Assembly: GCA_949297055.1 (NCBI GenBank) | Contig: CASFRI010000028.1 | Coordinates: 1 to 41,742 of the forward strand | Length of the DNA stretch: 41,742 nt | From: an uncultured bacterium | GTDB taxonomy: Bacteria > Bacillota_I > Bacilli_A > RFN20 > CAG-826 | Reading direction: 5' to 3' | Part shown: positions 27,659 through 41,273 of the stretch, piece by piece | Position numbering within the stretch: the first letter of the stretch is position 1 | Layout of the letters: every line of letters starts with the position of its first letter | Notes under the pieces: model-generated | The model's database searches: none | Told to the model about the DNA's origin: nothing | Seen by the model: the letters and a program-made list of their open reading frames with translations, nothing else | Position numbers and translations under genes: made by a program

Positions 27659-27861
27659 CTACTTATTTAAATACTTTTCAAACGCTAGTTTGTATTGTGC
27701 AATTTTTCTTGAGCATCCTTACCATAATCGCAAATATAAACTTTTTCTAAAGAAGATGGTTGATATTCACTTATTACTTTTGCCACGACAGCGGCGGCTT
27801 CTTCAACTGGGTATTCATATATGCCAGTTGAGATGGGTGGAAAGGCAATTGTTTTAAGTTT
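27659..27861 (-). pseudogene. macro-domain protein, 3' remnant with frameshift
   Basis: The minus strand encodes KTIAFPPISTGIYEYPVEEA and AKVIS...LEKVYICDYGKDAQEK, the C-terminal half of an ADP-ribose-binding macro domain; ISTGIYEYP is the family's substrate loop. The frame hits a stop at 27685, while the next frame continues QYKLAFEKYLNK to a TAG at 27659, so there is a frameshift near 27700. The N-terminal half is gone: an in-frame TAG lies at 27871-27873 and an IS21 remnant begins some 60 bases upstream. The insertion may have destroyed the gene. Confidence 0.75.
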
Positions 27862-28097
27862 CAAACAAAAAATTGACTAAACAATTAACATTCGTCCATT
27901 TTAATCCTTTTGTGGACGATTAAGTCAATAAAACGCCATTAAATCATTACTCCATGGTTGTACCAGTATAAGGTAAATTTCGATATAGCTACTACCTATA
28001 TCAAAACTGTAAATAATATTGATAAAATCCCCAATAATCACATTTCAAAAAAGGAACACCTTCTATAATTAATAAAAAATCATAGGAAGAGAAAAAT

Positions 28098-28268
28098 ATG
28101 TTACGAGGAGATTATTGGATGAACATTAAACATGATTATTACATTAAAAAATTATCAATATCTGAAATTGCAAGAATTTATGGTATTGATAGAAAAACAG
28201 TAAGACGATATTTACCACAAATAAGAATTTTGGTGAATGGGCTGATGTATTTCAAGATAACACTATAA
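28098..28268 (+). pseudogene. istA: istA transposase N-terminal fragment
   Basis: From ATG 28098 the first ~41 codons match IS21 IstA, including the helix-turn-helix ISEIARIYGIDRKTVRRYL. The frame then enters istB sequence out of phase and stops after 15 more codons. The catalytic DDE domain is missing, so no transposase is made. Confidence 0.8.
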
Positions 28269-28495: not shown

Positions 28496-29818
28496 TTAGT
28501 ACTTTAACTCTTCATCAAAATTATACATCCACTCAACCCAAGCTTTAATTGTGGAAGCTCTTCGATTTAAAGTTGATTCGGATAGTTTTTTATTTCCTGT
28601 GTCTTCCAATAGACTTTTCTTTATTACACCAACATCTATCTTTTTAGAATCAAAAAACATCAGATAATACTTTTTAAACGTGTCGTTATTGAGAAGCTGA
28701 GAGTGAATGTTCTTTTTGACTTCCATTTCATTGGTTTTGATAGATTTTGCCAATTCAGTGAACTTTTTATCGTGGGTAATATATTTTAGAAAAAGAAGCG
28801 CAGACAAATAATAAGCAACTTGTCTTGATGTTCCGACTTGAATAAGCTCCATAGCTTTATCCTTGTCATTCAGCACTTCCTCATCAGCCATCACAAGCTT
28901 AATAATTTTCGTCATGTCATTAGCTTGAGGAAAGGGGATGTTGTTATTCATTCCCCAGAAAATTGCTTCTCTTCCAGTCTTTCTCTCAGAACCCAAACAG
29001 TTTATTGAGCGGAGTGTTGTGAATTTACTGACGTCATAAAAAATCTTATAGTTTGGATCCTGCTCAAATAATTCAATGACTCTTTGAGTAGCGTTGTTGC
29101 TAATGATATCAAATGCCCCACGATTAATCGTTTTATCACATTCTTTTTTAAGTTTGACAAAGTCTTCAAATTCAAATCCTGTCATTTGATATTTGGTGAA
29201 ACCATCATCATCTTCATAGTCATAAGGCGGATCAATATAAATCACATCTCCGTCTTTTGCTTTTGCAAGAGTAATCTCGTAGGAATTACTAAAAATCCTA
29301 ATGTCATTTTCTTTAGCGCTGAGGTATTCGTGAATCTCTCTTAGATTATCTCTATCACAAATCGTAGGATTCTTATATCTTCCTATCGGGGTATTAAACT
29401 GTCCTTTTAAATTAACGCGATATAATCCGTTGTAACAAGTACGATTAAGAAAAATCATTCTAGCTGCTCTTTCGACATCAGTGTGATTGCTTGGCCATCC
29501 AGTTTCTCTATCCCAAGCTCTTACTTCGTAATAATATCCATCAGGATCATCAAAATAGGCTTTAGCATGTTCATCTAAAAGAGCGATTAAAGACTCAATT
29601 TCGTTTGATTGGATAACTTTATAAGCATTAATTAAATCGTCATTTAAATCACTGATTATAGCTTTTCTAGGAGCAAGGTCAAAGAAAACAGCACCACCGC
29701 CAAGGAATGGTTCGATATAAGTGTAGTTTTCGTTATCGGCTATTGAATCTTTTATGAATTCTTGAATGCGACCAAGTATTTGCCTTTTACCGCCAGCCCA
29801 TTTTACAAATGGTTTCAT
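28496..29818 (-). CDS. Dam-type DNA adenine methyltransferase with C-terminal extension
   Basis: A 440-residue protein. Residues 1-~290 are a class-alpha N6-adenine methyltransferase of the Dam/M.DpnII group: FVKWAGGKRQIL at the N-terminus, EPFLGGGAVFFDL (AdoMet binding, 36-48) and the catalytic DPPY at 196-199. Typical Dam enzymes end at ~280 residues; here ~150 more (AMELIQVGTSRQVAYYLSAL ... STLNRRASTIKAWVEWM) resemble a helical module appended to some restriction enzymes and methylases. The recognition site cannot be read. Last gene of the five-gene operon, 3 bases after the DUF6339-like gene, and likely to protect self DNA. Confidence 0.88.
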   Translation of the reverse strand: MKPFVKWAGGKRQILGRIQEFIKDSIADNENYTYIEPFLGGGAVFFDLAPRKAIISDLNDDLINAYKVIQSNEIESLIALLDEHAKAYFDDPDGYYYEVRAWDRETGWPSNHTDVERAARMIFLNRTCYNGLYRVNLKGQFNTPIGRYKNPTICDRDNLREIHEYLSAKENDIRIFSNSYEITLAKAKDGDVIYIDPPYDYEDDDGFTKYQMTGFEFEDFVKLKKECDKTINRGAFDIISNNATQRVIELFEQDPNYKIFYDVSKFTTLRSINCLGSERKTGREAIFWGMNNNIPFPQANDMTKIIKLVMADEEVLNDKDKAMELIQVGTSRQVAYYLSALLFLKYITHDKKFTELAKSIKTNEMEVKKNIHSQLLNNDTFKKYYLMFFDSKKIDVGVIKKSLLEDTGNKKLSESTLNRRASTIKAWVEWMYNFDEELKY

Positions 29819-29821
29819 TAA

Positions 29822-30574
29822 TTATTTGTTCCCATTTAGTAATTCTAGCATCTTTTCATAAATCATTCTTTCAATATCTTCTTCAGATATCTTATCTAGT
29901 AGTCTGACGCTGCCGATGACGGATACATATTTACTAATTTCTGGGTAAATATCGTTATCTTCGGCGCCACCAAATTCTTCTAAAGCTCGTTTTTCTCCTC
30001 TTAAAATTCCTCTAACAAGATGTTCTTCAGATGAAAAAGCTCTCCAAGTTAAGTTTCTAAATCTTTCAGGATTATTAATTACCCACTTGGTTAATTCATA
30101 TTTGTTTTCACCTTTTGATTCATCAACAGTCAACGCCACACGAAAGAAGCATCTTGAAAGTACACCAAACATGAGTCCTCTTCTGGTACCTTGAATATGC
30201 ATCCAGTGGTCTTTAATAGTTGATTCACCTCTAACTCTCATCATCTTTTTGCTTACGAGATAGAATTTTTCAAAGTGAAGCCAGAGCCAGAATTTTTCAT
30301 CACAAACAATGTATCTTGGCAATTCTTTTAAAGTTTCATAAATGGTTACTGAATTTTTGAAGTCAATATATTTATCGCCACTATCTGGATTGTCTTGAAG
30401 CTCAAAGTCAGATATTTCAATTTTCTTTTCTACAAACATTGGTTGCGGAAAAGCTGAATAAATCCATTTATTATTATCGTTCTCCTGAATGTTTTTAGTA
30501 ACGCTTGCTAAATTCTTTTTTAAATAAAGCAATGCATTTTCACTTAATAATTTAATATGAATTTTATTAGGCAT
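29822..30574 (-). CDS. DUF6339-like protein
   Basis: A 250-residue soluble protein. The pattern IKLLSENALLYLKKNL near the N-terminus, IYETLKELPRYIVCDEKFWLWLHFEKF and the later RGLMFGVLSRCFFRVALTVDESK match my memory of DUF6339, an uncharacterised family found beside DNA methylases. The conserved DExxW and R-x-S-R blocks could be functional, but no nuclease motif is evident. AGGAGGT precedes the ATG; it overlaps the upstream gene by 8 bases and the methylase follows 3 bases later. Confidence 0.6.
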   Translation of the reverse strand: MPNKIHIKLLSENALLYLKKNLASVTKNIQENDNNKWIYSAFPQPMFVEKKIEISDFELQDNPDSGDKYIDFKNSVTIYETLKELPRYIVCDEKFWLWLHFEKFYLVSKKMMRVRGESTIKDHWMHIQGTRRGLMFGVLSRCFFRVALTVDESKGENKYELTKWVINNPERFRNLTWRAFSSEEHLVRGILRGEKRALEEFGGAEDNDIYPEISKYVSVIGSVRLLDKISEEDIERMIYEKMLELLNGNK

Positions 30575-31481
30575 TTTCGCTACCTCCTATATCAATTTTG
30601 TTCGTTTCATTAACTAGTTTTGATAATGATTCGCCAATTGGTTTGCCAAGAAGATCCTGAGCTAAAGTTACTGGGGACATCTTTGAGAACTCGTCAGTTG
30701 TTAAATCAATTCCTTTTAATCTCTTATACGCTGTTTGAATTGAGCGGAACCATAGATATTGGTTACCAACATCGTCTAAATCTTTTGTCTCGTCATTTAA
30801 AACTTGTTTGCATAAAGACAATCCTTCAATTAAAGATGGGACTAAAAGCATATTGAAGAAGACTTCTTTATATGTTGGAACTGTGTAGATTACTTTGTAA
30901 TTTAAATAATCTTTTTCAGAAAGAGTGATAGAGATTTTTCTGCCAATGTTGCATTCAACAACATATTTGCCTTCTTCTAAATCGTGGTCGACATTAATCG
31001 CGAAGATTGATTGAACTAATGTTTCCTCGGCTTCTTCGTGTTTGAATCTAACATTAAACCCGTCATATACGCCCAAAATATCGTATTGGTCAATATCAAA
31101 CTCTAAGCCTTGATAATCTTCTTCTAACTCATTTGAAGATAGTTTAAATGGCTTTTTAGCGGTCGCGAACATTGAAATATCAACTTTCTCAGTAAAATCT
31201 ACCTTCGGTAGTATAATGCCTTTTGATTCTCTTCCAACTTCATACCCTCTTCTATAAACTGTATCCGAACACTCGACAATCATAGTTATTTCAATTTTGC
31301 CTTCTTCATACAATTGATTGATTGTTTGACTATCAGTCACGAAATGAACATTCTTTAAAATATAAGCTGCCTCAGTTTCTAAAGGTTCAAATTCCATAAA
31401 GAAATCTAAATCTTTAAAATTTGAGAATACCGCATTGTGGTTAATCACTGGATACGGAAATAATTTATTTCTTACTTGCAT
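30567..31481 (-). CDS. unknown protein of the methylase/GHKL operon
   Basis: A 304-residue soluble protein I do not recognise. The N-terminal half is beta-rich with several acidic stretches, and the C-terminal half is helical (YKEVFFNMLLVPSLIEGLSL; NQYLWFRSIQTAYKRLKGIDL). No Walker, HNH or clear PD-(D/E)XK motif is visible. GAGGT precedes the ATG. It overlaps the GHKL gene by 10 bases and the DUF6339-like gene by 8, so the three must be co-translated and probably act together. Confidence 0.7.
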   Translation of the reverse strand: MQVRNKLFPYPVINHNAVFSNFKDLDFFMEFEPLETEAAYILKNVHFVTDSQTINQLYEEGKIEITMIVECSDTVYRRGYEVGRESKGIILPKVDFTEKVDISMFATAKKPFKLSSNELEEDYQGLEFDIDQYDILGVYDGFNVRFKHEEAEETLVQSIFAINVDHDLEEGKYVVECNIGRKISITLSEKDYLNYKVIYTVPTYKEVFFNMLLVPSLIEGLSLCKQVLNDETKDLDDVGNQYLWFRSIQTAYKRLKGIDLTTDEFSKMSPVTLAQDLLGKPIGESLSKLVNETNKIDIGGSENA

Positions 31482-33418
31482 ATAACTTTTACCTCGCTTC
31501 CAAAGTAACCAACCGAATTGGTTTTAACATCTAATATGACTTTCTCATTTGCTGAGATTTCAAATGGACCATATTCAACTTTGTCTTCACTTTCAATGGT
31601 CATGCCATTTTTCTTCATTTCTAAAATTTCAACCGCTGAAGCATTATTCGCATCATCTAATAACAACAAGTCTAAATAGCATGTTTTGAAGTCAATTGGA
31701 GCAATAAAGATAATTCTCAGCCTTCCTTCTTCTTTGTTTGTAGAAATGACTTTGTAACGAACACCAGCGAGCTTTTGACGTTTGAAAATTACGTCATCTC
31801 CTTCTTTTTCGCGACTACTTTCACTTCCAGGACGATTTCCACCACCTTCGACATCATTATGACCATCTGGATGAGAAACATCTCCATCTTCGGTATTATC
31901 AATAGCACCTACATCTGGTTGTAGACTATTGCCGTCATCAGCTGGATTCTTTGCGTTTTTCTCAATTGTTTCATTTCTTTTTGGCTTAGAAATTGTTACA
32001 GACTCAATTGGTTTTTGATTGCCATTCGTTTCGTTTGAAGAATCTCCAACGCCTGTATCCGGTAAATAATCACCGGCACCATTAGGATCAAGAGGTTGCT
32101 CATCGCCGATTTGCAAGCATTCAATGACTCTATCTCTAATTTGTTGTTTAATTGAGCGCAAAACATTCTCGACTTCTAAACGAGTTGATTTATCTTTTAT
32201 TCTTTTTGTTTCCCAATCGATGTGCTGAGCGTTTTCTATCTCGCGTAGAGTTTTTCCTAAAAGATTGTCTTCTATAATGCACATTGCAGAAACTCTAAAG
32301 CTGGCTCCAAGCGGTTCGTCTTTAATTTTCATTAAAGGGTAACGAATCATTGTGCATTTATGGGTTGCTAATTCATCTTCTTCTTTTGATAAAGGAAGCA
32401 CATATAACGAACAATTGCCATAATCAGTATCAATATCGTAAACACTAACTTTCTCTGTGTCAGTTAACAATCTATATTGAGAAACAATACTACTCTTGTT
32501 TGCTTTGTAGATGATTGAATCATCATAAACTACGTCTTTTACGCTTCCATGATTGATAAGCATATCATTAATAGACACCTCTAAATCGCCGCGCACAATA
32601 GCTGGCATAAATGAATCTAATAAGCTATTAATTATTTCTTTTTCCCATTCTTCATTGGTATTGAAGGCAAGAATAAAAATATCTGTACCATATTCATTAA
32701 GTTTTCTCTTAAATGATTTATCTAACGACTGAATGGAGCTAATCGGATCATTAAGATTGTTTGAAGAATAATATCCTTTGCCTTGTGTATAATCTCTGTT
32801 TGCATCATTGCTGTCATCTAAATAACCAGAAATCAAATCTGATACGCCGATAAAGCCAACAAAATCACCTGCTTTACCATCAATATCTTGATTTGCTCTT
32901 GTAGCATAGAAAGCCGTTGATACTTCAGACATTAAATAAGCAGCATTTTTTCCTAATCCTTTTGATCCTGCTGCTAAAGTAGTGCCTTTTTCTGATACAC
33001 CTGTGCCTTTTGTTAAAGCAAGGAATTTATTGTTCTTTTGTTGGTCGGTATTAACACCAACAAGACCTGTAGTATTAAAATCGCTTACACGTAAGCAAGT
33101 AATACTTTCTTTATTTAATACGTTTAATAAATCGGTATAGATTTTTACATAGTCTGGTTTGTGCGACCAAAACTCTATACATCTTCTAACTTGTTCTTTT
33201 AATTCGTTATAACCTGGAATTAGGTTTGTGGCCAGCTCAAAAGTGTTGAACTCAACAATCGTTGGATTCTCATCGGAATCTCGTGCATCAATAGAGTTTT
33301 GTAATATTTCTCTCGCAAAAGCTTTGAATGGTGTTTTCTTAAATGTTTCGGTATCACCACTGCTAATTCCTTTTCTATCCCCGTGTCCACTTGCGGGGAA
33401 TCTCCATCTGTTTTCCAT
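31472..33418 (-). CDS. GHKL (MORC-like) ATPase
   Basis: A 648-residue protein with an N-terminal Bergerat-fold ATPase: REILQNSIDA (Asn41, Asp44), LRVSDFNTTGL (about 114-124) and the flexible lid GSKGLGKNAAYLM (about 155-167). Residues ~450-530 are a low-complexity, Asp/Gly/Asn-rich linker (PDTGVGDSSNETNG, PDGHNDVEGGGN), then a small beta-rich C-terminal domain. MORC-type GHKL ATPases occur in bacterial restriction-modification-like loci, where they are thought to clamp or remodel DNA. It is the second gene of the operon, 11 bases after the small first gene, and overlaps the next by 10. Confidence 0.8.
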   Translation of the reverse strand: MENRWRFPASGHGDRKGISSGDTETFKKTPFKAFAREILQNSIDARDSDENPTIVEFNTFELATNLIPGYNELKEQVRRCIEFWSHKPDYVKIYTDLLNVLNKESITCLRVSDFNTTGLVGVNTDQQKNNKFLALTKGTGVSEKGTTLAAGSKGLGKNAAYLMSEVSTAFYATRANQDIDGKAGDFVGFIGVSDLISGYLDDSNDANRDYTQGKGYYSSNNLNDPISSIQSLDKSFKRKLNEYGTDIFILAFNTNEEWEKEIINSLLDSFMPAIVRGDLEVSINDMLINHGSVKDVVYDDSIIYKANKSSIVSQYRLLTDTEKVSVYDIDTDYGNCSLYVLPLSKEEDELATHKCTMIRYPLMKIKDEPLGASFRVSAMCIIEDNLLGKTLREIENAQHIDWETKRIKDKSTRLEVENVLRSIKQQIRDRVIECLQIGDEQPLDPNGAGDYLPDTGVGDSSNETNGNQKPIESVTISKPKRNETIEKNAKNPADDGNSLQPDVGAIDNTEDGDVSHPDGHNDVEGGGNRPGSESSREKEGDDVIFKRQKLAGVRYKVISTNKEEGRLRIIFIAPIDFKTCYLDLLLLDDANNASAVEILEMKKNGMTIESEDKVEYGPFEISANEKVILDVKTNSVGYFGSEVKVICK

Positions 33419-33429
33419 ATACTCTCTCC

Positions 33430-33654
33430 CTACAACTCAAATCTTTTTGGGTTTTTGTTTTTATTGCGTCTTAAAAGCGTTTCCTTAGACTTCTTTGTTT
33501 CTAATTCAATAGCTTTAAAAATCTTCTCAATATCTTCATCTGTGTATTCGTAATATGAAGAATTGCCCAAGTTTGTAAGCTGAGCTAACATGGCTAATAT
33601 TTTTGATACTCTGTTTTCAGATATCCTTTTGAAGTTGTCTCTTTTTATATCCAT
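33430..33654 (-). CDS. small first gene of the methylase/GHKL operon
   Basis: A 74-residue basic protein (MDIKRDNFKRISENRVSKIL...). I start at 33654: it has AAAGGGG 8 bases upstream and lies ~20 bases downstream of the predicted transcription start, whereas longer readings begin inside or upstream of the promoter. Two predicted helices carry EYTDEDIEKIFKAIE. The tail KETLLRRNKNKNPKRF is strongly positive. Similar short proteins head some restriction or anti-phage operons; a control or DNA-contact role is possible, not shown. Confidence 0.7.
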   Translation of the reverse strand: MDIKRDNFKRISENRVSKILAMLAQLTNLGNSSYYEYTDEDIEKIFKAIELETKKSKETLLRRNKNKNPKRFEL

Positions 33655-33680
33655 ATCAGCAGCCCCTTTCTTCATTTTCG

Positions 33681-33709
33681 ATTGTATCAGATCAAAATAA
33701 AAAACACAA
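33681..33709 (-). promoter_or_regulatory. promoter of the methylase/GHKL operon
   Basis: Minus strand TTGTGT (33709-33704), 17-base spacer, TACAAT (33686-33681). Start predicted near 33674, 20 bases before the small gene's ATG. Confidence 0.55.
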
Positions 33710-33779
33710 ATAATTTCGTAATATTTTTGCAATATTTTTTGATTATTTTGTGTTCGATTGCCTATTTAAAAGTATTTTG

Positions 33780-34643
33780 CTAAAGCAAATTTATGGTAAA
33801 AGTAAACGTCTTATAAGTGCCGTTGCTGTAATCAATTTTAAAGGTGTCATTTAAGTAGCTTCTCACAACTCCAAGAAGAAGATATTTGTTCCACATTCTT
33901 CCTATATTTGGTAACGATGAGTATCCAGCGAATGTCTCACTATCAATGCTTCCGAAACTTTTAATATAGCATATGAGTTCTTTTTCAATCTTATCTAGTT
34001 TGTCTTCGTCTAAATCGAAAACTTCTTTTTTAATAGCTCTTTCTTGATCTACTTGAACGTAATCATCAGAAATATCAACAAAGAATGTTGGATAGTTCAT
34101 CAGTTTCTTTAAATGCATTTTATTTGCATAATTATTTAATTTGGTTACCGATATTTCATCTTGATCATATGCATAAGACACAATTATGTCATCGTTCTCT
34201 AGTTTGATCTCTTTATCTTTTGAGATAAACGGTTTCTTATAGTAATAGTCTTTTTCAAAATAAGCCATAACAAATCTAAATAAATCTGCTTGGTTATTAA
34301 AGCGGCCTAAAGCATCTAGTGAATCAGCATGAACAATAGACATGCGTGCATATAGTTTTCCTATTGTAATAACCGGGGTGTTCAAAGACTCAAACAAATA
34401 ATCAATTTCCTCTTTTAATTCAGTTTTGAAATGTTCATCTATTTTGCACTGAGTAACAGCATCGTAGAATTCTTGATTTTTATAATACTCATCGAGTCTA
34501 TTAAGTGTTTTAATTGTTGCTTCAATGTTTTTTTCACTAGAAACGAATTTGTCTTTAGCTTTTTGGATAACTTTTATTTTGTAATTCAAAAAATTGTAAT
34601 ACTCATCAAAAAGGAAAAAATCGTCATATCCTTGAGATACCAT
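33780..34643 (-). CDS. hypothetical protein upstream of the methylase operon
   Basis: A 287-residue acidic, mostly helical soluble protein with no motif I know. Features: a charged helical N-terminal half (KDKFVSSEKNIEATIKTLNR), the centre ARMSIVHADSLDALGRF, and a C-terminal beta stretch. I use ATG 34643; an in-frame TTG lies three codons earlier. No ribosome site is clear. Its stop is ~70 bases from the operon promoter, so it is a separate unit, but location suggests an accessory role in the same island. Confidence 0.6.
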   Translation of the reverse strand: MVSQGYDDFFLFDEYYNFLNYKIKVIQKAKDKFVSSEKNIEATIKTLNRLDEYYKNQEFYDAVTQCKIDEHFKTELKEEIDYLFESLNTPVITIGKLYARMSIVHADSLDALGRFNNQADLFRFVMAYFEKDYYYKKPFISKDKEIKLENDDIIVSYAYDQDEISVTKLNNYANKMHLKKLMNYPTFFVDISDDYVQVDQERAIKKEVFDLDEDKLDKIEKELICYIKSFGSIDSETFAGYSSLPNIGRMWNKYLLLGVVRSYLNDTFKIDYSNGTYKTFTFTINLL

Positions 34644-35208
34644 ACCCAGCAATTGATTAATTACTTAATTATTTTTAACCATATTTTATAAAATTTATAT
34701 GTTGTTTTTCATCACTAAGTCGTTTCCTCATCTTTTTTTTAAAGATTACAACAATAGCAAAGATGTCCCTTACACTTTAGATAACTTATCTTATATAAAA
34801 GACATGTTCTCTTTAAAAAACATTATATACTCAATGTAACATTTGCATAAAAAGACATATTCCTGTCTACAGTGTTCGTAACACATTTTTAAGGTCAAGA
34901 AGAAAGAAAAAACACTAGCGGAACTATCGCTACTTCTGGTGCTTCACCAGTTTCGTAACATTGATTCAAAATCTATCAATTTTTAGTGTTTTTTTACTGC
35001 TTTTTCGCCCTTCAAAGATAAGCCACAAATTGTTTCAACGTGCGATGCTCTATTTTATTGTTTATATTTTACGAGGGTTGAAACTCACGAATTGCTTACC
35101 TTTTGGGAGTTGTTCGAAATTATTGTTTATCTTTTTAGTTACATAGTAACTAAGTAAAAAAGACATGTTACTTTGGTTGTGACAACCCCTCAAATTAATT
35201 GAAAATCA
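34644..35208. other. 565-base non-coding region
   Basis: No supportable gene. It holds copy A of a 180-bp structured element (34901-35080) and a palindrome AGTTAC-ATA-GTAACT near 35138-35152. GGTTG-TCA-CAACC, close after the DUF4143 gene, could end its transcript. Confidence 0.5.
34901..35080 (-). repeat. RNA-like repeat element, copy A
   Basis: One of two ~180-bp copies flanking the DUF4143 gene (other copy 36684-36862). A 39-base block (35002-35040) is identical in both. On the minus strand the element ends with a compound hairpin and TTTTTTCTTTC, like a terminated small RNA. The hairpin uses outer arms CACT/GGTG, inner arms AGCG/CGCT and a 7-base loop. An alternative outer stem CTGGTG-AAG-CACCAG is also possible. 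Confidence 0.6.
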
Positions 35209-36507
35209 TTATGGTTTTAAACAGCCAAGAGGCACAACGTATACTCCATTATCATCTCTTAACGCCACATTTGTTCCTGTTACAACCATCAAGAATGCTG
35301 GTTTAGGATGTTCTTTATCATCGATATCGTTAGCAAGTTCAACAAGTTTAGTTGACGCTTCTTTAATTTCTTCTTCATCCCCAAGTTTGACTTCAACAAG
35401 CGCCCAAGAACCATCATTAAAAACAATAACAGTGTCGGCTTCTCTCTTTAATTTATCTCTATAGTGATATACTTCGGCACCAATCGTATCACAATATATT
35501 CTTAAATCTCTAACTACTAGTGACTCAAAAAACAATCCGAAAGTTCTCATGTCTGAAAACATACTTTCTGGAGTGATACTTAATGCGGAAGTAGCGATTG
35601 ATGGATCAACAAAATGTCTTGTGTTTTTTTCTCTTATTGCGGTTTTGCTTCTTAGATTAGGATTCCAAGCTTCAAGCTCTTCGATAACATAAAGACGTTG
35701 CAATGCTAGCAAATACTTAACAAATGTATCCTTGTCAATTTCATCACCATTTTCTTTAATATCAGCTTTTATTGATTCATTAGAAGCTGCGGTTGAAATA
35801 TTTCTAGCATACGCCCTTAATAATTTTTTTGCTCTTTGTTTGTCTTTACGAAGAGGAACATCCTTAAGGGAAAACAAATCTTCTTCAACTAAACCATTAA
35901 AAAATGTTTTAGCCTGTTGGAGAGATACTTCTTTATCATTATCAATAGCAAGCGGCCAACCACCTCTACAAACTAAATACGAATAATCAGAAATTGTTTT
36001 TTGACAAATAGCGGCATTGAATATTCCTTTCCTTAAATTGGAAATGGAAACATCACCACTACTATCCCCGCTTTCAAATAGCGAGAGAGGTCTCATCATT
36101 TTTTTGATAATTCTACCAGTGCCAGTATGTTTTTCGTTTTCTTCGCCCGCTAATGAATTAGAAGTGGTGTTATCAGTGACACTACCAGTTAAAATGTATT
36201 GGCCAAAACCACCATTTTCATCGACAGCCTCTTTTATAGAATTCCAAATAAAAGATATTATTTGCCATTCATCTATTAAAATTGGTTTATCTCCGCTATT
36301 TAGTAGTACTTCGGGCGCCTTCTTTGCAAGATTAACGTATTGATCCCTTGTTTTTTTCTTCATTAAATCAACGATAGTTTTAGCATGTCTTTTTGCTGTT
36401 CTAGATTTACCGCACCATTTTGGACCAACAATCTGAATTGCTCCAACTATTTTTAAATAAAAATCTAATTCCTTATCAAATAAACGTTCAATATATTCTT
36501 TTTCCAT
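35209..36507 (-). CDS. AAA_14/DUF4143 family ATPase
   Basis: A 432-residue protein. The N-terminal AAA+ domain has Walker A GPKWCGKS (28-35), Walker B PILIDEWQ (75-82) and sensor-like ILTGS. The C-terminal DUF4143 part has an E...ADTVIVFNDGSWALVEVKLG block of PD-(D/E)XK nuclease-like type. These proteins are widespread, often in accessory DNA, with unknown function. The start at 36507 has GAGGT upstream; a longer reading (36546) begins where 23-bp repeats begin. The gene stands alone between two copies of the RNA-like element. Confidence 0.88.
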   Translation of the reverse strand: MEKEYIERLFDKELDFYLKIVGAIQIVGPKWCGKSRTAKRHAKTIVDLMKKKTRDQYVNLAKKAPEVLLNSGDKPILIDEWQIISFIWNSIKEAVDENGGFGQYILTGSVTDNTTSNSLAGEENEKHTGTGRIIKKMMRPLSLFESGDSSGDVSISNLRKGIFNAAICQKTISDYSYLVCRGGWPLAIDNDKEVSLQQAKTFFNGLVEEDLFSLKDVPLRKDKQRAKKLLRAYARNISTAASNESIKADIKENGDEIDKDTFVKYLLALQRLYVIEELEAWNPNLRSKTAIREKNTRHFVDPSIATSALSITPESMFSDMRTFGLFFESLVVRDLRIYCDTIGAEVYHYRDKLKREADTVIVFNDGSWALVEVKLGDEEEIKEASTKLVELANDIDDKEHPKPAFLMVVTGTNVALRDDNGVYVVPLGCLKP

Positions 36508-36546
36508 GGAAGATACCTCGATTAGATGATATATCAACGAGAACAA

Positions 36547-37180: not shown

Positions 37181-38071
37181 ATGGCAATGACAACTAAACA
37201 AGCTAGTGAAAAATGGGGAATCTCTGATAGAAGAATTCGTATCCTTTGCTCTGAAGGAAAGATAGAAGGTGCCGAACTAATTGGTAAAACCTGGTATATA
37301 CCTGATAACGCTTCTAAACCAGTTGATGGTAGAGTTAAGAAACCTAATTCCTATTTATTAAAGATTGAAGAACTAAAGAAAGTGCTTGATAATAAAAGGC
37401 ATTTAACAGAAGGTGAACTTCAAAGATTAAACGAAGAGTTTATTGTTGAATATACTTATAACAGTAACGCGATTGAAGGTAACACATTAACATTAAGAGA
37501 AACTGAATTAGTATTGCGTGGCCTTACCATTGATAAAAAGCCTCTTAAAGATCATATGGAAGCAGTTGGCCATAAAGAAGCTTTTGATTATATCGTTGAT
37601 TTAGTAAAAGACAAAACTGAATTATCTGAATTTATCATCAAACAAATCCACTACCTCGTTTTAGCGGACAAACCTCAGGATAGAGGAGTCTATCGTAAAG
37701 TTCCAGTAACCATCATGGGAGCAAAGCACACTCCTGTTCAACCATATTTAATTGAACCAAAGTTACAAGAATTACTTGAATGGTATAAAAATAGCGATGA
37801 CGACTTCATCACTAAGTTAGCTAGATTCCATATTGAATTTGAAGGCATCCACCCATTCATCGATGGAAATGGAAGAACCGGAAGATTATTAGTGAATCTT
37901 GAATTAATGAAACTTGGTTATCCACCTATTGATATTAAGTTTGCCGATAGGATGGCATACTATGGTGCTTTTGATGCCTATCACGTCAAACATGATTTAA
38001 AACCAATGGGTTCACTATTTGGAAGATATCTGTTTGAAAGATTGAGTAAATATGTTTCTATTCTAGACTAA
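37181..38071 (+). CDS. Fic-family AMPylase-like protein with N-terminal HTH
   Basis: A 296-residue protein. Residues 4-45 resemble a MerR/excisionase-type helix-turn-helix (TKQASEKWGISDRRIRILC). The Fic domain carries the complete active motif HPFIDGNGRTGR (224-235), used to transfer AMP or another nucleotide group to a hydroxyl. An N-terminal inhibitory motif SNAIEG (95-100) fits the (S/T)xxxE(G/N) lock of class II Fic proteins. AGGAGG precedes the ATG. It may be a solitary regulated Fic enzyme; no antitoxin gene is adjacent. A terminator overlaps its stop codon. Confidence 0.92.
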   Translation: MAMTTKQASEKWGISDRRIRILCSEGKIEGAELIGKTWYIPDNASKPVDGRVKKPNSYLLKIEELKKVLDNKRHLTEGELQRLNEEFIVEYTYNSNAIEGNTLTLRETELVLRGLTIDKKPLKDHMEAVGHKEAFDYIVDLVKDKTELSEFIIKQIHYLVLADKPQDRGVYRKVPVTIMGAKHTPVQPYLIEPKLQELLEWYKNSDDDFITKLARFHIEFEGIHPFIDGNGRTGRLLVNLELMKLGYPPIDIKFADRMAYYGAFDAYHVKHDLKPMGSLFGRYLFERLSKYVSILD

Positions 38072-40073: not shown

Positions 40074-41273
40074 TCACATACTTTCGTGTTTTATTAGTTT
40101 TTGTAGAAATTGAATTGATTTAATTAATTCTTCTTCTGTTGGTTCCGTTCCTTCTTTTGGATGATGAAAATAGTTTCTAATATATGATGGTATAGTTACA
40201 TATATATATTCTTTAGGTTTTATAGTTCCGTCAGGCTTTCTAACCATTTTCTTAAAAGTCCATGGTTTGAAATATTCAGGACCATATAATGCCCCGTCTC
40301 TAATGTGCTTATCGAGTTTTAATGGACTATCTAATCCGGTAATATCAGTGTAATAAGCATAAAGTTCATTATGATAATCGTATGTTGGAATTCCAAATAT
40401 AACATAATCTAATTCTGCAAAAGTAAATTTAGGTAATACGATTAAATCCTGATTAACAATATCAGTTTTTATATCTCCGTTCTCTTTTGAGAAACGGACA
40501 ATCAAAACATCGCCCATGTTTAACAGGGATTCAAGAATTTTCTCTGAATGAGTAGCAATAAACATCTGTGGAATTTCTCCATCTTGATTTGAAACCATTT
40601 CTTTGAAAAAACTTATTATGTGTTTTTGCCATCTAGGGTGAAGAGAGGTTTCAGGTTCATCAAAAAGAATGAAATCTGTAGCCACAACAATATTTTGAAG
40701 AACGCTCATCTTAAGTAATATTTCTTGTTGGCCTGATGAAAGTTTTGTTAAATCAATATTACTTTTACTTCCATCAATAAGTTTAAGAGCTTCTCCACCA
40801 CATTTAATTCCTGATAATTTGTTATTCAAATAAGCGTTTAGGATTACTTCATCATTAAATAAAGAAACAAAATCTTTGCCCAGGATTTGTGTATTGATTT
40901 TTGATGTTCTTCTTAATGAATAAGGATTCTTTCCACCAACCAAATCTTCATTTGAATCAATTGGGAAAGGTCCATTATTACCATTTATTTTTTTAACTAT
41001 TTCATTTTGAGAAAGAGTATATAAAGAGTTTTGCCTTAAAAACAAAGGATGAAAACCTAAATCACTAATAATGTCTATTCGTGATTGCTTATCAATGATG
41101 TATTTTGATTTGCTGTAATTAAAAAGTTCATTCAACACCGTTGTCTTGCCACATCCGTTTTCTCCAATAAAAACAACAATCGGGAAAGGCTTTCCTGTTG
41201 AAGCATTAATAAAATTAAGATTGATGTCTTTTAGAATTGGGTGGTTTCTAATTTTCAATTGTTCTAAATGCAT
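40074..41273 (-). CDS. AAA ATPase of the SMC/ABC-like (AAA_21) type
   Basis: A 399-residue ATPase: Walker A GENGCGKT (37-44), signature LSSGQQE, Walker B FILFDEPETSLHP, and switch IATHSEKIL. Such stand-alone ATPases power anti-phage systems (Septu PtuA, some retrons) and other accessory functions. The C-terminal ~100 residues end with SYIRNYFHHPKEGTEPTEEE; the RN-x3-H-like motif recalls HEPN RNases, but this is only a resemblance. No nuclease gene is adjacent. A -10-like TAAAAT sits 6 bases before the ATG and no ribosome site is present, suggesting leaderless mRNA. Confidence 0.82.
   Translation of the reverse strand: MHLEQLKIRNHPILKDINLNFINASTGKPFPIVVFIGENGCGKTTVLNELFNYSKSKYIIDKQSRIDIISDLGFHPLFLRQNSLYTLSQNEIVKKINGNNGPFPIDSNEDLVGGKNPYSLRRTSKINTQILGKDFVSLFNDEVILNAYLNNKLSGIKCGGEALKLIDGSKSNIDLTKLSSGQQEILLKMSVLQNIVVATDFILFDEPETSLHPRWQKHIISFFKEMVSNQDGEIPQMFIATHSEKILESLLNMGDVLIVRFSKENGDIKTDIVNQDLIVLPKFTFAELDYVIFGIPTYDYHNELYAYYTDITGLDSPLKLDKHIRDGALYGPEYFKPWTFKKMVRKPDGTIKPKEYIYVTIPSYIRNYFHHPKEGTEPTEEELIKSIQFLQKLIKHESM

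What the first reader, a model, noticed from the sequence alone, without database searches (positions are those of the whole stretch)
28496..33709. Five-gene methylase/DUF6339/unknown/GHKL operon as a possible new anti-phage system
One promoter, overlapping genes and one terminator join a small basic protein, a MORC-like GHKL ATPase, an unknown 304-residue protein, a DUF6339-like protein and a Dam-type methylase with an extra domain. MORC-type ATPases with methylases were predicted to form restriction-like systems, but no helicase or obvious nuclease is seen here, so the effector must be one of the unknown proteins or an uncharacterised mechanism.
Basis: partly seen in the sequence, partly recalled or inferred. 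Interest (0 to 1): 0.78.

Follow-up and report, generated by a model that had tools for sequence, protein, structure and literature searches.

The report
Methylase-linked MORC-like defence operon (PDC-M33)
This is a block of genes in a gut-type bacterium that pairs a DNA-methylating enzyme with a MORC-like ATP-driven machine already listed as a candidate phage-defence system; here the usual DNA-cutting enzyme is missing and its tail has ended up on the methylase, so it may be a defence that marks its own DNA and blocks foreign DNA without cutting it.

Summary
The operon is real, intact and tight. Its core (648-, 304- and 250-aa proteins) is already catalogued as PADLOC's candidate system PDC-M33 A, B and C; no paper on it was found. 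The 648-aa protein carries all the GHKL motifs plus the ExxxH signature of paraMORC2 (100 of 100 homologues). It lacks the MORC signature (0 of 100). A, B and C almost always occur together (DUF6339 in 19 of 392 genomes, every one with A).

The methylase's extra domain (DUF7226) is the tail of a type II restriction enzyme (DUF6996-DUF6997-DUF7226). In seven related loci, the window included, the tail sits on the methylase and the nuclease domain is missing from the whole genome. In five relatives with a plain methylase the full restriction enzyme is present. Confident models of the 304- and 250-aa proteins show no recognisable nuclease fold. Homologous cassettes sit beside many different methylases, and the cassette's tree follows the methylase type.

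Best reading: a methylation-coupled defence in which the paraMORC2 complex, not a nuclease, is the effector. That mechanism is inferred; no phage test exists.

The parts
33780..34652 (-). G' (290 aa, TTG start by the ORF rule): C-terminal domain of the variable partner family 'G'. Relatives have 473-491 aa (L031, L121) or 780-1183 aa with a sigma-70 region 4 HTH. Here the N-terminal about 180 aa is missing.
   Evidence: tblastn of L031's 473-aa protein E 2e-68 over its residues 173-472, L016's 379-aa protein E 9e-86; profile search finds G in 33 of 87 loci; alignment
33430..33654 (-). S: small basic helical-type protein (74 aa from ATG; a longer TTG start at 33732 is possible)
   Evidence: profile hits in 60 ORFs of the locus set, normally just upstream of A or of G-A
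31472..33418 (-). A: paraMORC2-type GHKL ATPase, 648 aa (PDC-M33A)
   Evidence: PADLOC PDC-M33A E 2.2e-130 over 1-645; E37, D113, GxxGxGK 151-157 and E395xxxH399 invariant or nearly so in 100 homologues
30567..31481 (-). B: 304 aa (PDC-M33B); Ig/FnIII-like beta-sandwich (residues about 10-149), further strands, helical C-terminal third
   Evidence: PADLOC E 5e-52; AlphaFold2 mean pLDDT 89.4; VIA-align best Z 6.4 to beta-sandwich domains, no Foldseek hit below 0.03
29822..30574 (-). C: DUF6339 protein, 250 aa (PDC-M33C); mostly helical
   Evidence: PF19866 E 2.8e-36; PADLOC E 1.3e-41; AlphaFold2 mean pLDDT 95.5; no significant PDB match
28496..29818 (-). D: Dam-family N6-adenine methyltransferase (residues 1-284) with C-terminal DUF7226
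   Evidence: TIGR00571 E 3e-68, PF02086 E 9e-52
28517..28831 (-). [quoted passage not shown]
   Evidence: PF23871 E 1.2e-12; PDLC03513 E 7.6e-9; profile of the restriction enzyme hits D at 287-433

Best explanation
A methylation-coupled, restriction-like defence system: a variant of the candidate PDC-M33 family. SHOWN: an intact S-A-B-C-D operon; a conserved A-B-C core with complete GHKL ATPase motifs and the paraMORC2 signature; a Dam-type methylase that carries the tail domain of a type II restriction enzyme family whose nuclease domain is not found in the genome; no recognisable nuclease in the operon. INFERRED: D methylates host DNA at its target. The paraMORC2 ATPase A dimerises on ATP and, with the beta-sandwich subunit B and the helical subunit C, forms a DNA clamp (S as a basic DNA- or protein-binding helper, G as a swappable sensor or adaptor). 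The complex loads or locks on DNA that lacks the methyl mark and stops its replication or transcription by clamping or compaction, as eukaryotic MORCs compact DNA, rather than by cutting.
For: A-B-C co-occur almost without exception. ATPase residues are invariant, so ATP turnover is under selection. A tree of A splits into a Dam-associated clade and a clade rich in C5-methylases; partner type needs 15 changes against 38.3 in shuffles, 0 of 200 as low, so the cassette and the type of mark travel together. In 42 loci with both flanks at least about 6 kb, 30 have a methylase within 8 kb, and methylase counts fall with distance (18, 12, 9, 3 per 2-kb bin). Tail on methylase with nuclease domain absent: 0 of 7 genomes, against 5 of 5 positive controls (Fisher p 0.001). 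The same methylase-DUF7226 architecture in another genome sits beside Pbe-type effectors (PbeA E 1e-198, PbeC E 4e-74) with no M33 in that stretch, so effectors behind this mark look exchangeable. B and C show no nuclease fold. Precedents: Pbe was reported to halt viral DNA replication without cutting (PMC6459918; disputed in PMC10853773); MORC2 is an ATP-driven DNA clamp and compactor (PMC12216690); a paraMORC3 protein, VcSduA, gives phage defence (PMC12137116).
Against: No phage or plasmid test exists for M33. 12 of the 42 well-flanked loci show no methylase within 8 kb by the motif test, including a group of Anaeroplasmataceae with A-B-C beside housekeeping genes, so a methylase is not obligatory. 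Other M33 loci keep full R-M systems, so A-B-C does not generally replace the restriction enzyme. Absence of a known nuclease fold is not proof of no nuclease: DUF6339 has conserved polar residues (D92, R132, R141, D151, E160, D227) that could be an unknown active site. Clamping and methyl sensing are inference. The GHKL call rests on motifs.
Confidence: 0.42

Rival explanations
1. M33 is an accessory of ordinary restriction-modification systems: it helps or backs up a neighbouring restriction enzyme (for example by holding or remodelling DNA after recognition), and the window copy is a decaying system whose nuclease is lost and whose methylase is now an orphan.
For: Many M33 loci sit beside complete systems: AlwI plus two Dam methylases on a Lactococcus plasmid, Sau3AI/MutH plus Dcm in Priestia, FokI/AlwI-like, HsdR, MmeI. 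The window's G' has lost its N-terminal part.
Against: S, A, B, C and D are all full length with intact motifs; the fused-methylase type is one well-supported clade on the tree of A and keeps A-B-C-D in all seven loci and S in most, so it appears to be maintained without the nuclease.
Confidence: 0.25
2. A nucleolytic system with an unrecognised nuclease in A's C-terminal part, B, C or G, or one that recruits a host nuclease; the methylase protects self as in a classical system.
For: Related GHKL proteins act with nucleases (MutL-MutH/Vsr; paraMORC3-Shedu, PMC12137116); DUF6339 has invariant polar residues; some C5-type M33 loci carry Vsr.
Against: No nuclease profile in any operon protein; no nuclease fold in the B and C models.
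Confidence: 0.15
3. Stand-alone A-B-C system that merely sits in defence islands; the link to methylases reflects island clustering and not function.
For: Some loci lack any nearby methylase; the cassette moves with many kinds of defence genes; the window carries other defence-type genes to the right.
Against: Methylase type follows the phylogeny of A; D directly follows C with a 3-bp gap in the window and stays next to C throughout its clade.
Confidence: 0.12
4. A chromosomal DNA-organising or gene-silencing system of the host, methylation-dependent like eukaryotic MORC pathways, and not a defence.
For: MORC precedents in compaction and silencing (PMC12216690, PMC8277788).
Against: Patchy, mobile distribution (23 of 392 genomes, 1 of 4 sampled in the genus, plasmid and viral-contig copies), as for defence genes.
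Confidence: 0.06

Closest known systems
PDC-M33 (PADLOC-DB 2.0 'phage defence candidate', components A, B, C)
   Same: A, B and C match all three component profiles nearly end to end and in order
   Different: The database entry is a bare candidate; here the cassette is tied to S, G and a Dam-DUF7226 methylase that stands where relatives have a Dam plus restriction-enzyme pair
paraMORC2 ATPases in restriction-modification operons (Iyer, Abhiman and Aravind 2008, PMC2292703)
   Same: GHKL motifs, invariant ExxxH, R-M neighbourhood, Gram-positive bias
   Different: No SFII helicase and no nuclease in the window's operon; B and C partners were not seen in the parts of that paper's text that were read (figures are not held)
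Pbe (PbeABCD) systems (PMC6459918; reinterpreted in PMC10853773)
   Same: Modification-linked, reported to stop replication without cutting; in one genome uses the same Dam-DUF7226 methylase architecture
   Different: ABC-type ATPase and helicase-PLD effectors, none of which is present in the window's operon
Type II R-M with restriction enzyme PDLC03513 (DUF6996-DUF6997-DUF7226) and a plain Dam
   Same: Dam methylase and the DUF7226 domain
   Different: In the window the nuclease domain is absent and DUF7226 is fused to the methylase
VcSduA (paraMORC3-Shedu, PMC12137116) and MZA
   Same: GHKL ATPase in phage defence
   Different: VcSduA carries its own DUF4263 nuclease; MZA (from own knowledge) has a Z1 protein and AIPR; A gets no MzaB hit

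Membership tests
PDC-M33 | Components A, B and C matching the PADLOC profiles, adjacent and in order | tested here: met
   E 2.2e-130, 5e-52, 1.3e-41; for order
PDC-M33 | Anti-phage activity | not testable with these tools
   no experiment; no paper in the library holds 'PDC-M33' or 'DUF6339'
paraMORC2 | GHKL ATP-binding motifs (N, G1, G2 boxes) | tested here: met
   E37, N41, D44, D113, G118, GxxGxGK in 97-100 of 100 homologues
paraMORC2 | Conserved ExxxH in the C-terminal part of the S5 domain | tested here: met
   E395 and H399 in 100 of 100; definition from PMC2292703. That these residues lie in an S5 domain was not shown
paraMORC2 | S5-fold domain after the GHKL domain | not tested
GHKL superfamily | Recognition by a GHKL family model or profile | tested here: inconclusive
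   Pfam HATPase_c_3 only E 0.25 in one of 13 members; hhalign to a MutL-type profile weak, P 0.005, but G2 boxes in register; 5 of 19 GHKL proteins among the top 11 non-A hits
MORC proper | GhXhhpXXRhl motif | tested here: not met
   0 of 100 homologues
Classical type II R-M | Cognate restriction enzyme near the methylase | tested here: not met
   DUF6997 not found in the window genome (positive controls); no R-profile nuclease in the window. An unknown unrelated enzyme is not excluded
MZA | Z1 partner and MzaB-type GHKL protein | tested here: not met
   no MzaB hit for A and no Z1 protein in the operon; the relative L093 does have a Z1 protein next to A
Pbe | PbeA and PbeC genes in the operon | tested here: not met
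   no Pbe hit for any operon protein

The most novel reading that the evidence does not exclude
The window represents a nuclease-free, methylation-guided immune system in which a bacterial paraMORC2 clamp (A-B-C, with S and G) recognises the lack of a Dam-DUF7226 mark and silences or compacts invading DNA: a bacterial counterpart of eukaryotic MORC silencing, evolved by losing a restriction nuclease and moving its tail domain onto the methylase.
Probability: 0.22. Interest if true: 0.85.

Novelty: new variant of a known kind. Interest (0 to 1): 0.55.

Why it matters
Bacterial MORC relatives have been predicted to work in restriction-modification systems since 2008 but, apart from the nuclease-bearing Shedu form, no test of one was found here. 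This locus is a compact case (about 5 kb) with a natural control: close relatives with plain Dam plus a restriction enzyme, against the window type with the fused methylase and no nuclease. It makes the question whether a MORC-type ATPase can restrict DNA without cutting it directly testable, and it gives a likely origin for a methylase's DUF7226 tail.

Tried and rejected
PDB sequence searches with A, B and C profiles and with the restriction enzyme gave nothing usable; the DUF6339 hit to a designed repeat protein (E 5e-5, no passing domain) was rejected. Fold searches of B and C: only generic beta-sandwich or helical matches; missing matches are not taken as new folds. 'MORC proper', MZA and Pbe membership were tested and not met. 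Promoter and terminator claims not supported. The G N-terminal piece was sought in the window with relatives' proteins: no remnant found. Literature searches for DUF6339 and PDC-M33: none. Restriction enzyme elsewhere in the genome: the DUF6997 domain was not found (positive controls).
Full report
WHAT IS THERE. The minus strand of 28496-33654 holds five tightly spaced, intact genes: S, A, B, C and D. Gaps and overlaps of 11, -10, -8 and 3 bp are what a single transcript would show; the consensus scan, however, finds promoter-like and terminator-like sites no more often than shuffled sequence does, so 'one promoter, one terminator' is not evidence. C is DUF6339. D is a Dam-family adenine methylase with a C-terminal DUF7226. 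A and B have no Pfam family, but A, B and C match the three components of PADLOC's candidate system PDC-M33 nearly end to end. So the core was already on a list of predicted defence systems. The library of papers holds nothing on 'PDC-M33' or 'DUF6339'.

THE ATPASE. Across 100 homologues the N box (E37, Q40, N41, S42, D44), the G1 box (D113, G118) and the G2 box (GxxGxGK, 151-157) are essentially invariant, as are R359 and E395xxxH399. Iyer et al. 2008 define paraMORC2 by GHKL motifs plus a strongly conserved ExxxH in the S5 region, and place these proteins in restriction-modification neighbourhoods, mainly in Gram-positive bacteria and cyanobacteria. Their MORC-specific motif is in 0 of 100 homologues. 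A is therefore paraMORC2-like, not MORC proper. The caveat is that no Pfam GHKL model recognises A, and hhalign to a MutL-type profile is weak. Five of 19 GHKL proteins are among the top 11 non-A hits of A's profile in 1781 proteins (p 5e-8). The assignment is good but rests on motifs.

CONSERVATION. In 392 genomes of the phylum, A occurs in 23, B in 21 and C in 19; all 19 C genomes and 20 of the B genomes have A, at adjacent coordinates. The chance of that is about 1e-28. Only 1 of the 4 sampled genomes of the genus has it, and relatives occur on Lactococcus, Ligilactobacillus and Priestia plasmids and on viral contigs: the pattern of a mobile defence cassette. A scan of a collection of 84,980 species' genomes gave 80 further loci with flanks. 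In them A-B-C is a fixed block, and S often comes before A.

THE MISSED GENE. Directly upstream, same strand, 33780-34652 encodes a 290-aa protein. It is the C-terminal domain of a family (G) found in 33 of 87 loci between S and A, before S, or after C. Full-length members have 780-1183 aa, those tested with a sigma-70 region 4 HTH, or 473-491 aa with another N-terminal domain (L031, L121); one carries DUF3427 (L047). The window copy lacks the N-terminal about 180 aa, and no remnant was found. Two relatives, L032 and L055, keep only the N-terminal part. G is the variable component, which suggests a sensor or adaptor; whether the window's short form works is unknown.

THE METHYLASE TAIL. DUF7226 is the C-terminal domain of a type II restriction enzyme family (DUF6996-DUF6997-DUF7226; PADLOC PDLC03513) that stands beside a plain Dam methylase in L038, L040, L049, L053, L057 and L062. 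In the window, L029, L030, L031, L032, L055 and L058 the same domain is fused to the methylase. The DUF6997 domain was sought in whole genomes: 0 of these 7 have it above cut-off (L032's genome has a 29-position sub-threshold match), against 5 of 5 plain-Dam controls (Fisher p 0.001). The fused rows included in the tree of A form one clade (support 100). Two M33-free genomes of the window's own family carry the ordinary Dam plus restriction-enzyme pair (L118, L119). A further genome has a methylase-DUF7226 fusion beside PbeA and PbeC and a free-standing DUF7226 protein, with no M33 (L120). Inference: the tail is a recognition module shared between methylase and effector, and different effectors can be coupled to the same mark.

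PARTNERS ELSEWHERE. Neighbouring genes of M33 include C5 methylases, Dam methylases, Vsr, FokI/AlwI-like enzymes, HsdR, MmeI, type III-like and Z1 proteins and PD-(D/E)XK nucleases. Of 42 loci with both flanks at least about 6 kb, 30 have a methylase within 8 kb (motif and cluster test; it can miss or overcall some), falling off with distance. On the tree of A, partner type changes 15 times against 38.3 in shuffles (0 of 200 as low). The shuffle test asks only whether labels cluster, and near-copies inflate it, but the deep split into a Dam-rich and a C5-rich clade is plain. Against an obligatory link, some loci (for example L042, L046, L050-L052) show A-B-C with no methylase nearby.

STRUCTURES. 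AlphaFold2 models were made from window and scanned-locus alignments. C: mean pLDDT 95.5, mostly helical with short N-terminal strands, no significant PDB match. B: mean pLDDT 89.4, an Ig/FnIII-like sandwich followed by further strands and a helical C-terminal part, matching only generic sandwich domains. No conserved D-ExK, HNH or similar set appears in B; C has conserved polar residues of unknown role.

HOW IT PROBABLY WORKS. D marks host DNA. The paraMORC2 complex acts on DNA lacking the mark, using ATP to clamp and perhaps compact it and so stop its replication or transcription. Each of these steps is inference. It is guided by the absence of a recognisable nuclease, the invariant ATPase, the behaviour of MORC2 as an ATP-driven clamp and compactor (PMC12216690), the report that Pbe halts replication without cutting (PMC6459918; challenged in PMC10853773), and the phage defence given by a paraMORC3 protein (PMC12137116). 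The main rival is that M33 assists restriction enzymes and that the window copy lost its enzyme.

VERDICT. A real, well-conserved candidate system, already listed, in an uncommon and informative variant. New variant of a known kind; interest 0.55.

Noticed in passing
window 35209-36546 (-): AAA_14/DUF4143 ATPase matching another PADLOC candidate, PDC-S01 (E 1.3e-51), next to the system.
   Followed up: partly
window 37181-38071 (+): Fic-domain protein matching PDC-S04 (E 6e-40) and SoFic (E 1e-30).
   Followed up: partly
window 40074-41273 (-): AAA ATPase with partial similarity to PtuA and AriA (Septu, PARIS) families; the region right of the operon looks like a small defence island.
   Followed up: partly
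L120:3055-9737: Methylase-DUF7226 fusion beside PbeA, PbeC, a 183-aa unknown and a free-standing DUF7226 protein: a Pbe-type system tied to an adenine-type methylase.
   Followed up: partly
L121:3646-10419: Complete window-type six-gene system in a genome where an in-frame TGA in A suggests TGA is read as tryptophan; the full G' (491 aa) is present.
   Followed up: partly
L042, L046, L050, L051, L052: A-B-C alone beside what look like housekeeping genes (a CinA-like and a uridine-kinase-like protein follow downstream) with no methylase seen nearby: a possible stand-alone form.
   Followed up: no
L047:8459-10000: G-family C-terminal domain fused to DUF3427: the N-terminal part of G is swappable.
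   Followed up: no
window 27685-27864 (-) and 28098-28268 (+): What look like a macro-domain fragment and a short HTH protein at the left edge: possible mobile-element remnants.
   Followed up: no
L124:496-1986 (window genome contig 39): Another GHKL protein with a strong HATPase_c_3 match (E 4e-33) in the same genome.
   Followed up: no
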